NCBI GenBank assembly: GCA_017437925.1
Contig: JAFRWQ010000139.1
Coordinates: 1 to 7,461, forward strand
Reading direction: 5' to 3'
DNA from: Bacillota bacterium
Lineage (GTDB): Bacteria > Bacillota_A > Clostridia > Peptostreptococcales > Anaerovoracaceae
DNA: 7,461 nt
The notes beneath the pieces were generated by a model, which did not search any database, was not told the origin of the DNA, and saw only the letters and a program-made list of their open reading frames with translations. Each line of letters starts with the position of its first letter. Position 1 is the stretch's first letter. A program made the position numbers and the translations under genes. This document shows, piece after piece, positions 365-3,970 of this stretch.

Positions 365-463
365 GTTAGGGAATATTTACGCTGGTTTTTCCACAAAAAG
401 TTCCCTAACTGCTTGACGGTTAGGGAACTTTTATATATAATTCCAAGTGAAATGTTCCCTAAC
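365..463. promoter_or_regulatory. Four-box symmetric operator (GTTAGGGAAC boxes) of the Fic operon
   Basis: The 10-bp box GTTAGGGAAC occurs four times in alternating orientation: 365-374 (forward, 9 of 10 matching), 400-409 (reverse), 419-428 (forward) and 454-463 (reverse). The two inner boxes extend to a perfect 14-bp inverted repeat (396-409 and 419-432) with a 9-bp spacer. Centre-to-centre distances are 35, 19 and 35 bp, so all four boxes are symmetric about position 414. Each box is itself a loose dyad (GTT-N4-AAC). The inner pair flanks and overlaps the -35 element and spacer of the promoter at 413-441. The last box lies just before the ribosome binding site. This is the architecture expected of a repressor binding cooperatively; the regulator is not identifiable here. 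Confidence 0.82.
413..441 (+). promoter_or_regulatory. Near-consensus housekeeping promoter of the Fic operon
   Basis: The -35 element is TTGACG (413-418, 5 of 6 matching) and the -10 element is TATAAT (436-441, perfect), with an optimal 17-bp spacer. Transcription should start near 447-449, which puts the GTG at 447 at or before the mRNA start and favours the ATG at 477 as the true Fic start. The -35 lies in the centre of the inner operator palindrome, and the right arm (419-432) fills most of the spacer. A bound repressor would therefore block RNA polymerase directly. A promoter this strong covered by operators suggests a unit that is normally kept silent. Confidence 0.87.
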
Positions 464-476
464 CGGAGGTGTTCTT

Positions 477-1412
477 ATGTCGGGATTTGATGAGATACGG
501 TCCGCGCTCAACGAAAGGGCGGAGCTTAACGCGAGGCTCTCGCAGATACCCTATGAGGGCACTCCCGAGATAAAAGAAGTAAAAGGGCAGAAATACCTTT
601 ATACGAGAAAGCGCGTCGGCAGCAAGCTGACCTCGGCCTATGTGGGCACGTATTCCGACGAGCTCTACCAGCTGCTGCTGCGCGGTACAAGAGAAGCGAG
701 AGAGCTGAGAAAGCAGATCAGAAAGCTGGACAGAAGGCTGGCCGACCTGGGCTACCTTGAGGGCGAGCTGCCGCCCCGGGTGGTGCAGAACCTGGATTTC
801 GCCAGGGCGAACATGAAGTCCAACATATATGACCAGGCGGTGCTCGAGGGGGTGGCCACGTCCTTCCCCCAGACCGAGGAGATCATAGACAACGGCAGGG
901 TCAGCGGCATGACGGCGACCGACGTCCAGAAGATACTGAACCTGAAGCACGCCTGGGAGTTCATCCTGGACCCCGGCGTCATTCAGGCGAGGAGCGATCT
1001 TTACGTTCTCTGCCACATCGCGAGGCTCGTGAACGAGGGCTTTTTTGCGGACGGAGGCCGCATTCGCGGGGTGCCCGTGACCATAGGCGGTACGTCGTAC
1101 GTCCCGCCGCTTCCCATAGAAACGGTGGTGAGAGAAGAGATCGAGGAGATACTCGGGTCCGGCGCCGAAGACATCGACAAGGCGATACGCCTATGCCTGT
1201 ACACCATGAAGACCCAGGTCTTTCTCGACGGCAACAAGCGGGCTGCGGTGATCTTCGCCAATCACTTTCTCATCGCCCACGGCCGGGGTTTTCTTGTGAT
1301 ACCCGAGGCGAATGTCCCTCTGTTCAAGAAGCTTCTGGTGGATTACTATGAATGTGAAGATCCAAAGACCATTGCCGGTTTCCTGAAGACAAATTGCTGG
1401 AAAACGTTTTAG
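477..1412 (+). CDS. Fic-domain protein with Gln in place of the catalytic His
   Basis: The protein has 311 residues. The ATG at 477 is chosen because GGAGGT (465-470) lies 6 bases upstream; a GTG at 447 coincides with the predicted mRNA start. Residues 28-93 hold a basic region (YLYTRKRVGSK...YVGTYS) followed by a charged, probably coiled helix. Residues 115-165 match the N-terminal inhibitory helix region of class II Fic proteins, with LEG at 123-125 around the conserved Glu124, although the usual Ser four residues before it is Gln120. The flap is at about 193-211 (GGRIRGVPVTIGGTSYVPP). The Fic motif, normally HxFx[DE]GN[GK]R, reads QVFLDGNKR at 247-255. Fic enzymes usually transfer AMP or another phosphate-containing group to a protein hydroxyl, using this His as the base. 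With Gln247 the chemistry may be altered or lost. I recall Firmicutes Fic relatives with the same Gln, so it may be a subfamily trait. It is the first gene of the operon. Confidence 0.88.
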   Translation: MSGFDEIRSALNERAELNARLSQIPYEGTPEIKEVKGQKYLYTRKRVGSKLTSAYVGTYSDELYQLLLRGTREARELRKQIRKLDRRLADLGYLEGELPPRVVQNLDFARANMKSNIYDQAVLEGVATSFPQTEEIIDNGRVSGMTATDVQKILNLKHAWEFILDPGVIQARSDLYVLCHIARLVNEGFFADGGRIRGVPVTIGGTSYVPPLPIETVVREEIEEILGSGAEDIDKAIRLCLYTMKTQVFLDGNKRAAVIFANHFLIAHGRGFLVIPEANVPLFKKLLVDYYECEDPKTIAGFLKTNCWKTF

Positions 1413-1444: not shown

Positions 1445-1966
1445 ATGCTAAACACTATGACTTTTATGAAATACATGAAGACTGAGGCGGGGATGCTGGC
1501 GCGGGTGGAGACGTCGTCCAGAGCGCCGCTGAACGTGGATCTCGATAAGGATTCGGAGATGGACCTTAAGCAGGGGACCCGCTGCGAGCTCGACATACGC
1601 GCATATTCGGGAGATTTCATGATCTTTCAGCGTGAGGACGAGTTTCGCGTGTATGCGGAAAAACAATACCACATCAGCGGAACCGAAGTTATGATTCCGA
1701 TCGGCACTTACATACCGAGGACCGGGTGGACGGAAGATGACTCCTGGCAGAAGCCGACCATCGCCTTCTCGGGCGTCGTGCAGGGCGGCGCTTACTACAG
1801 CAACGCGAAAGAAGACTCTCCCAACTATTCGCTGGAGATCAAGACCTTTGACATGGTATTCGATTTCAAGGTGCGCTATGACGGCAAGGTGATGATAGGA
1901 GACTATGTCTGCGGACGCGCGTGGCTGTACGCGACCATGAAGCATGTGGAGAAGGGAAAGAAATGA
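1445..1966 (+). CDS. Hypothetical protein, beta-rich, second gene of the Fic operon
   Basis: I do not recognise this 173-residue protein. The ATG at 1445 follows AAGGA (1433-1437) with a 7-base gap; a TTG at 1394 would overlap the Fic gene and lacks a site. The N-terminus (MLNTMTFMKYMKTEAGMLARVETSS) is Met-rich and perhaps helical. The rest alternates hydrophobic and charged residues in short strands (for example CELDIRAYSGDFMIF at 47-61 and MVFDFKVRYDGKVMIGDYV at 137-155), suggesting a mostly beta, soluble fold. There is no signal peptide or membrane segment, and the C-terminus is basic (KHVEKGKK). It starts 32 bases after the Fic stop, and its stop overlaps the next start (ATGA at 1963-1966), so it is very likely translationally coupled to the next protein. 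No function can be assigned. Confidence 0.78.
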   Translation: MLNTMTFMKYMKTEAGMLARVETSSRAPLNVDLDKDSEMDLKQGTRCELDIRAYSGDFMIFQREDEFRVYAEKQYHISGTEVMIPIGTYIPRTGWTEDDSWQKPTIAFSGVVQGGAYYSNAKEDSPNYSLEIKTFDMVFDFKVRYDGKVMIGDYVCGRAWLYATMKHVEKGKK

Positions 1967-3736: not shown

Positions 3737-3970
3737 ATGAAGAAAGCAACGCTGGATGAACTGGGTTTCGAAGCCAGAGGCGAGGCCGTGAGGTTCCTGA
3801 AAAAACTCTGGACCGGCGAGGGGGCGGACTGTCCCGTCTGCGGCGGAAAGCTTGAGCTGCTGCACAGGAAGGCTAAGAAGAATGTCTGCGACTGGCAGTG
3901 CCCCGGCTGCGGAAGGGTGTTCAGGACCATACACCTGCTGGATGAACTGAATGAGACCATGCCCAAGTAG
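3737..3970 (+). CDS. Small zinc-ribbon protein, last gene of the Fic operon
   Basis: The protein has 77 residues. It starts 9 bases after the SDR stop, with GAGG at 3729-3732 as a close ribosome binding site. It carries two Cys pairs, Cys32-Pro-Val-Cys35 and Cys55-Pro-Gly-Cys58 (each followed by Gly), which should bind one zinc as a ribbon; Cys51 is an extra cysteine. A short helical N-terminus (EAVRFLKKLW) precedes the ribbon. The layout, with WQCPGCGRVF at the second pair, resembles the zinc ribbons of some transposases and of transcription factors, but no transposase domain is attached and the protein is complete. It may bind nucleic acid or a partner protein. Whether it is the regulator of the upstream operator cannot be told. 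Function unknown. Confidence 0.75.
   Translation: MKKATLDELGFEARGEAVRFLKKLWTGEGADCPVCGGKLELLHRKAKKNVCDWQCPGCGRVFRTIHLLDELNETMPK

What the first reader, a model, noticed from the sequence alone, without database searches (positions are those of the whole stretch)
365..463. Four-box operator with exact two-fold symmetry over a near-consensus promoter
Four copies of GTTAGGGAAC in alternating orientation are spaced 35, 19 and 35 bp centre to centre, all symmetric about position 414. The inner pair is a perfect 14-bp inverted repeat covering the -35/spacer region; the outer pair sits upstream and between the mRNA start and the ribosome binding site. Same-orientation boxes are 54 bp apart, close to five helical turns, which suits cooperative binding or wrapping by a multimeric repressor. 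No DNA-binding regulator with a classical fold is encoded next to it, so the Fic protein, the zinc ribbon or a distant regulator may be the binder.
Basis: partly seen in the sequence, partly recalled or inferred. Interest (0 to 1): 0.72.

Follow-up and report, generated by a model that had tools for sequence, protein, structure and literature searches.

The report
Fic protein's own two-box operator
The repeated boxes in front of this gene are most likely the docking sites of the gene's own product, a Fic-fold protein that has lost its usual catalytic residue and seems to read DNA with a small beta-sheet, so the gene appears to switch itself off; the same arrangement recurs with this gene in very different gut bacteria.

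Summary
The boxes are real, but the four-box symmetry is not the unit. The conserved unit is a two-box inverted pair, TTAGGGAAC-N25/26-GTTCCCTAA, spanning the -10 of the fic promoter: 76 of 80 starts (window plus 79 loci at 66-83% identity) have it, and 148 of 155 full-length genes down to about 38% identity have a pair of related half-sites (shuffles 1.5%). Spacings cluster at N25/26 and N15, one helical turn apart. Two palindromic pairs in tandem are symmetric anyway; the gap between pairs varies and the window's value is unique.

The binder is most likely the Fic protein. Its N-terminal domain (predicted three-stranded sheet plus helix, pLDDT 94.7) holds the residue that tracks the box: Arg35 in 23 of 24 proteins with TTGGGG boxes against 1 of 94 with TTAGGG boxes, beyond 2000 tree-based simulations. 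No neighbour gene is widely shared. The catalytic His of Fic is Gln in 167 of 168. Best reading: a mobile, self-repressing, probably non-AMPylating Fic regulator working like CccR with a different DNA-binding domain. No binding experiment exists.

The parts
419..428 (+). Box 3, left half-site of the conserved core pair, between -35 and -10
   Evidence: conserved geometry
454..463 (-). Box 4, right half-site of the core pair, between expected mRNA start and ribosome binding site
   Evidence: 76 of 80 starts have the pair at N25 or N26
365..374 (+). Box 1, left half-site of the optional upstream pair (one mismatch)
   Evidence: complete upstream pair in 37 of 76
400..409 (-). Box 2, right half-site of the optional upstream pair
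413..418 (+). -35 hexamer TTGACG, ends just before box 3
   Evidence: sequence; TTG at -7 relative to the TTAGGGAAC core of box 3 in 35 of 43 genes examined
436..441 (+). -10 hexamer TATAAT, inside the core pair
   Evidence: sequence; best TATAAT match at +16 from the box 3 core in 28 of 43 genes examined
465..470 (+). Ribosome binding site GGAGGT
   Evidence: sequence
477..1412 (+). fic gene, 311 aa, proposed autorepressor
561..650 (+). Codons of the predicted three-stranded beta-sheet (residues 29-58); residue 35 tracks the half-site, residues 33 and 51 perhaps
   Evidence: structure; covariation
657..746 (+). Codons of the long predicted helix (residues 61-90) joining sheet and Fic domain
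1005..1271 (+). Fic domain PF02661 (residues 177-265)
1215..1217 (+). Gln247 codon where other Fic proteins have the catalytic His
   Evidence: alignment to FICD

Best explanation
The fic gene represses itself. A Fic protein dimer binds the two inverted half-sites TTAGGGAAC-N25-GTTCCCTAA, one N-terminal beta-sheet per half-site. Because one half-site lies between -35 and -10 and the other just after the expected mRNA start, the bound dimer bridges the -10 and shuts out RNA polymerase. A second pair upstream, present in 37 of 76 close loci and 56 of 156 full-length genes of the wider set, adds affinity. Specificity sits in the sheet: residue 35 reads box position 3 (shown statistically); residue 33 positions 3-4 and residue 51 positions 7-8 (suggested only). 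The Fic domain keeps the nucleotide-binding DGNKR motif but has Gln for the catalytic His, so it more likely senses a nucleotide or a partner that relieves repression than acts as an AMP transferase. Shown: conserved operator geometry, covariation at residue 35, loss of His, no widely shared neighbour. Inferred: dimer, direct binding, repression, ligand sensing.
For: Core pair in 76 of 80 starts, N25 in 61 and N26 in 15; pair in 148 of 155 unique full-length genes, proximal gaps N25/N26 in 124 and N14-N16 in 19, shuffled 1.5%. Fixed placement around -35/-10 (43 genes). Residue 35 against box position 3: Arg in 23 of 24 G boxes and 1 of 94 A boxes; top of all columns; MI/H 0.862 against a maximum of 0.635 in 2000 simulations on a tree from residues 100-311 only; 0 of 300 simulations reach it over all columns. 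Residue 33 Lys/Arg against position 4 G/T: 119 of 119 and 29 of 29, on two changes of each. Largest neighbour cluster 9 of 79 loci, next 4. In 50 genomes 59 of 63 exact pairs lie at fic promoters and 2 directly after fic. Pattern-only search in 299 genomes of one family: 18 of 25 loci lie at a fic gene; of the 19 loci not known before, 12. N-domain model pLDDT 94.7; the two best Foldseek rows are arm-type DNA-binding domains (not significant). Precedent: CccR.
Against: No binding or expression data. Foldseek matches of the N-domain are not significant (E 0.19 and 0.21), and unrelated helical chains score higher Z in VIA-align. On starred branches alone only 4 independent pairs exist for position 3 (about 2.8 concordant, 0 discordant), too few for significance. 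The residue 33 and 51 links do not pass the all-columns control (9, 56 and 63 of 150). Exceptions: L155 (Asn35 with a G box) and L039 (Arg35 with an A box). Seven of 155 genes lack a pair under the rule used. Seven of 25 pair loci have no intact fic, and four of those genomes show no fic relative, which pure autoregulation does not explain.
Confidence: 0.8

Rival explanations
1. The boxes are sites of a host-encoded regulator that controls fic as a foreign gene.
For: No binding test was possible; some solo pairs occur in genomes where no fic relative was found.
Against: The pair travels with fic across loci titled from several phyla, changes in step with Fic residue 35, and is nearly confined to fic in 50 host genomes. 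No widely shared neighbour gene.
Confidence: 0.08
2. The pairs are primarily ends or scars of a mobile single-gene cassette, with regulation secondary.
For: Ten of 151 genes carry a further pair within 150 nt after the stop, 9 of them at 0-13 nt (control windows 60 of 4449). Solo pairs without the gene. In 18 of the 45 most similar pairs of loci listed, similarity spans only 58-76 nt upstream to the stop, give or take 12 nt.
Against: 141 of 151 genes lack a downstream pair; the fixed geometry around -35 and -10 is an operator's hallmark; other close pairs share kilobases (such as L048/L050); those 18 pairs come from few clusters; duplicated targets were not sought; decay of unselected flanks would give the same bounds.
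Confidence: 0.08
3. The pair acts in RNA as a hairpin.
For: Pairs fold well as single strands; the five tested (four solo pairs and the window's core pair) had z between -4.9 and -7.4, as any inverted repeat would.
Against: Box 3 lies upstream of the expected mRNA start, so the fic mRNA would hold only box 4; half-site letters covary with a protein residue.
Confidence: 0.04

Closest known systems
CccR of Yersinia pseudotuberculosis (PMC9755527; passages and section 10 part 1 seen)
   Same: Fic-fold protein that binds its own promoter as a dimer at two inverted 10-bp boxes 26 bp apart and represses itself
   Different: CccR has a C-terminal HTH, the catalytic His and FtsZ AMPylation; here the proposed DNA reader is an N-terminal beta-sheet, His is Gln, box letters differ, and the pair is often doubled
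Gln-type Fic/Doc clade D2 (PMC4454073; passages seen)
   Same: Motif Qx[FY]x[DE][GV]NKR in place of HxFx
   Different: D2 proteins are described as usually single-domain; this branch carries an N-terminal domain and an operator pair
Arm-type DNA-binding domains of HPI and P4-like integrases (3jtz, 3rmp)
   Same: First two Foldseek rows for the N-domain (E 0.19 and 0.21, not significant)
   Different: Those belong to integrases; here the domain sits on a Fic protein
Pfam DUF6788 (PF20586)
   Same: Precomputed PF20586.4 on all 120 listed of 7993 homologues
   Different: The PF20586.3 model held here gave no match over its cut-off in 28 host genomes, and the window protein no match in Pfam beyond Fic; no paper in the library names DUF6788

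Membership tests
CccR-type Fic autorepressor | Fic fold | tested here: met
   PF02661 over its cut-off; Foldseek FICD, BT_2513, SO_4266
CccR-type Fic autorepressor | Own promoter with inverted half-sites about 26 bp apart | tested here: met
   (sequence only)
CccR-type Fic autorepressor | C-terminal HTH domain | tested here: not met
   No HTH in Pfam up to E 1; the extra domain is N-terminal, helix-sheet-helix
CccR-type Fic autorepressor | Catalytic His of HxFx(D/E)GN(G/K)R | tested here: not met
   Gln in the window and in 167 of 168 unique relatives, window included
CccR-type Fic autorepressor | Autorepression and dimer binding | not testable with these tools
   needs EMSA and reporter assays
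Gln-type Fic (D2 of Khater and Mohanty) | Motif Qx[FY]x[DE][GV]NKR | tested here: met
   QVFLDGNKR in the window
Gln-type Fic (D2 of Khater and Mohanty) | Single-domain protein (usual, not strict) | tested here: not met
   N-terminal domain of about 95 residues
phd-doc / FicTA toxin-antitoxin pair | Partner antitoxin gene beside it | tested here: not met
   No neighbour shared by more than 9 of 79 loci; only ORFs of 50 aa or more within 4 kb were compared, so a very short partner could be missed
Arm-type integrase DNA-binding domain | Same fold | tested here: inconclusive

The most novel reading that the evidence does not exclude
A horizontally spreading single-gene element: a Fic pseudoenzyme turned into a one-component DNA-reading switch, with an evolvable recognition code in its beta-sheet, whose operator pair both silences the gene and marks the ends of the roughly 1-kb unit that moves between phyla, leaving solo pairs behind when it is lost.
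Probability: 0.2. Interest if true: 0.82.

Novelty: new variant of a known kind. Interest (0 to 1): 0.63.

Why it matters
Gln-type Fic proteins were catalogued in 2015 and argued to be possibly not dead, with no function shown in the passages I saw. Here one large branch gets a testable function: a self-repressing transcription regulator. It also offers a natural recognition code (residue 35 to one base) across many orthologues, and adds a second case, with a different DNA-binding domain, of a Fic regulator using half-sites about 26 bp apart, which suggests that the Fic dimer itself may set that distance.

Tried and rejected
Four-box symmetric operator as the unit: rejected, because the inner gap varies and the upstream pair is optional. 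Zinc ribbon or other neighbour as the regulator: not supported, no widely shared neighbour. Known RNA element: no Rfam match in the window at gathering thresholds. Defence system: only weak PADLOC rows, best E 0.001 for the zinc ribbon and 0.037 for Fic. Viral scans for pairs without the gene: 8 + 3 contigs, fic in 3 of them (L091, L201, L203); the other 8 show no fic and may be chance. Box positions 7 and 8 against residue 51: first-ranked column, single-column P 0.003 and 0.002, but not beyond the all-columns control. Residue 33 was second-ranked for position 4. Rows dropped: L068, because its pair call is a chance match (it is still inside the 148); L007 (gene cut at the contig start); genes with internal stops or no start were skipped. 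The half-site rule was written after seeing the sequences; its shuffles used the same rule but kept only base composition. Simulations were kept only if 10-60 tips carried G. Literature: searches listed no paper on a Fic protein with an N-terminal sheet or on this operator, CccR apart; long answers were seen only as capped lists (such as 25 of 218, 20 of 539 and 15 of 743).

Full report
What is there. The window holds four copies of a 10-bp box around the promoter of a 311-residue Fic-family gene (477-1412). Three are exact and one has one mismatch. The promoter is near consensus (TTGACG, 17 bp, TATAAT).

What is conserved. A scan of one genome per species kept the best 80 loci, with relatives at 66-83% identity, of at least 575. 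Printing upstream regions and measuring them showed TTAGGGAAC-like boxes at N25 (61) or N26 (15) in 76 of 80 starts (the window and 79 loci, L007 left out; some loci are near-copies of each other). The four without are L030, L045 (upstream partly masked with N, one box left), L046 (degenerate) and L068. A complete second pair upstream is present in 37 of 76. The gap between box 2 and box 3 is 10-15 bp in 39 of the 42 loci with a box 2 (13 bp in 18) and 11 bp only in the window, so the symmetry about 414 is a by-product of two tandem palindromic pairs. Relative to the TTAGGGAAC core of box 3, TTG of the -35 starts at -7 in 35 of 43 genes and the best TATAAT match at +16 in 28 of 43; these 43 are the N25 genes of the G-at-position-4 class with 14 nt or more between pair and start. 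Of 8 such N26 genes, 5 have TTG at -7 and 3 the TATAAT at +16. Titles name Oscillospiraceae, Lachnospiraceae, Erysipelotrichaceae, Acidaminococcaceae, Spirochaetales and one each of Actinomycetaceae, Coriobacteriales and Bacteroides, mostly metagenome bins whose assignment can err.

How common. In whole-genome samples a relative was found in 39 of 392 genomes (phylum of G002, E up to 1e-20, stand-alone Fic included), 2 of 398 (phylum of G027, E 1e-45), 3 of 296 (phylum of G011, a genome titled Spirochaetaceae), 66 of 245 (order of G340, E 1e-40) and 5 of 197 (family of G021): patchy, as for a gene that moves.

Distant relatives. These searches and stretches taken from them reach 31-38% identity. 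They have different but related half-sites: ATGTGAAAC or GTGTGTAAC, TTAGGGTGA, ATAGGGTAC, TTGGGGAGC. Of 155 unique full-length genes with 60 nt or more upstream, 148 have a pair; proximal gaps are N25 (96), N26 (28), N15 (15), N14 (3), N24 (2), N27 (2), N16 (1) and N18 (1; the L068 chance call). Shuffled upstream regions give a pair in 1.5%. N15 and N25 differ by about one helical turn, as expected if two linked DNA-reading domains must face the same side.

Who binds. No gene beside fic is widely shared: the largest neighbour cluster spans 9 of 79 loci, all others 4 or fewer. In 50 host genomes the exact pair occurs 63 times: 59 at fic promoters, 2 directly after fic and 1 elsewhere in a held locus, and 1 on G003:C88 (L083); the reversed pattern occurs in none. 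Among 118 Lys33 proteins (L068 dropped), Arg35 occurs in 23 of 24 with G at box position 3 and in 1 of 94 with A. On a tree from residues 100-311 position 3 changes 11 times and Arg35 8 times (L068 still included). The association exceeds 2000 simulations of position 3 on that tree (0.862 against a maximum of 0.635), and 0 of 300 simulations reach it when the best of all columns is taken. Counter-examples are L155 and L039. With starred branches only, the independent-pairs test has 4 pairs (about 2.8 concordant, 0 discordant) and cannot reach significance. Residue 33 (Lys or Arg) matches position 4 (G or T) without exception, 119 and 29, but on only two changes, and 9 of 150 simulations do as well over all columns. 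Residue 51 ranks first for positions 7 and 8, with 5 of 5 Asn51 proteins having T at position 7, but fails the all-columns control.

The Fic domain. The catalytic His is Gln in 79 of 79 close proteins, window included, and in 167 of 168 of the wider unique set, Lys in one; that set was found by similarity to this protein, so it does not sample Fic proteins at large. Two of three plasmid relatives read (L191, L192) also have Gln; the third (L193, 467 aa) gave no match to my motif pattern. The Gln clade was described in 2015 as D2, with the caution that it may not be catalytically dead.

Comparison with the known. CccR, a Fic protein with a C-terminal HTH, represses its own promoter through two inverted 10-bp boxes 26 bp apart, which its authors relate to the 70 Angstrom distance of its DNA-binding helices. 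The operator logic is the same here; the DNA-binding domain, its position and the active site are not. I therefore say that it works like CccR, not that it is one.

Loose ends. Ten of 151 genes have a further pair just after the stop. A search by pattern alone in 299 genomes of the family of G027 (the genome of L078, titled Lachnospiraceae bacterium P6A3) found 25 loci in 22 genomes: 18 at fic (13 of the 20 loci fetched, one of them cut by a contig end, plus 5 already known) and 7 not, one of these beside a fic remnant (L223). Six of the 18 were known beforehand, so of 19 new loci 12 lie at fic. Four of the genomes with a solo pair show no fic relative. The reversed control hit 2 of the 299 genomes, so one or two solo pairs may be chance. 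One solo pair is kept at the same place in a second genome of the genus with unchanged arms and a changed loop (L206 and L228). Among the 45 most similar pairs of loci listed, 18 (from few clusters) share only 58-76 nt upstream to the stop, give or take 12 nt, while others share kilobases. A mobile cassette that leaves scars would explain these points, but decay of unselected flanks explains the last one too.

Noticed in passing
L015, L037, L046, L072, L073, L076, L094, L096, L128, L142: A further half-site pair within 150 nt after the fic stop codon (9 of 10 at 0-13 nt). In 7 of 10 it is of the same half-site type as the gene's promoter pair, in L037 and L128 in one arm only, and L046 has no clear promoter pair to compare.
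   Followed up: partly
L205, L206, L210, L213, L216, L217, L223: Solo operator pairs without an intact fic gene; L223 has a fic 5' remnant, and four of the host genomes show no fic relative.
   Followed up: partly
L008 and L009 at the fic stop codon: 97.9% identical over fic and 1.2 kb upstream, but the similarity ends at the stop codon.
   Followed up: no
L083 3846-3911: A second copy of the fic promoter region in the same genome as L005, broken off within box 3: looks like the remnant of a lost gene.
   Followed up: partly
window 1445-1966 and 1963-2913: Two genes of 173 and 316 aa after fic with no Pfam or NCBIfam match up to E 1.
   Followed up: no
window 3737-3970: A 77-aa zinc-ribbon protein with a below-cut-off match to the DpnI family; not among the neighbour clusters of three or more loci.
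   Followed up: partly
L171: One contig carries both Fic subfamilies with different half-sites (TTGGGG type and ATGTGAAAC type) about 2 kb apart.
   Followed up: no
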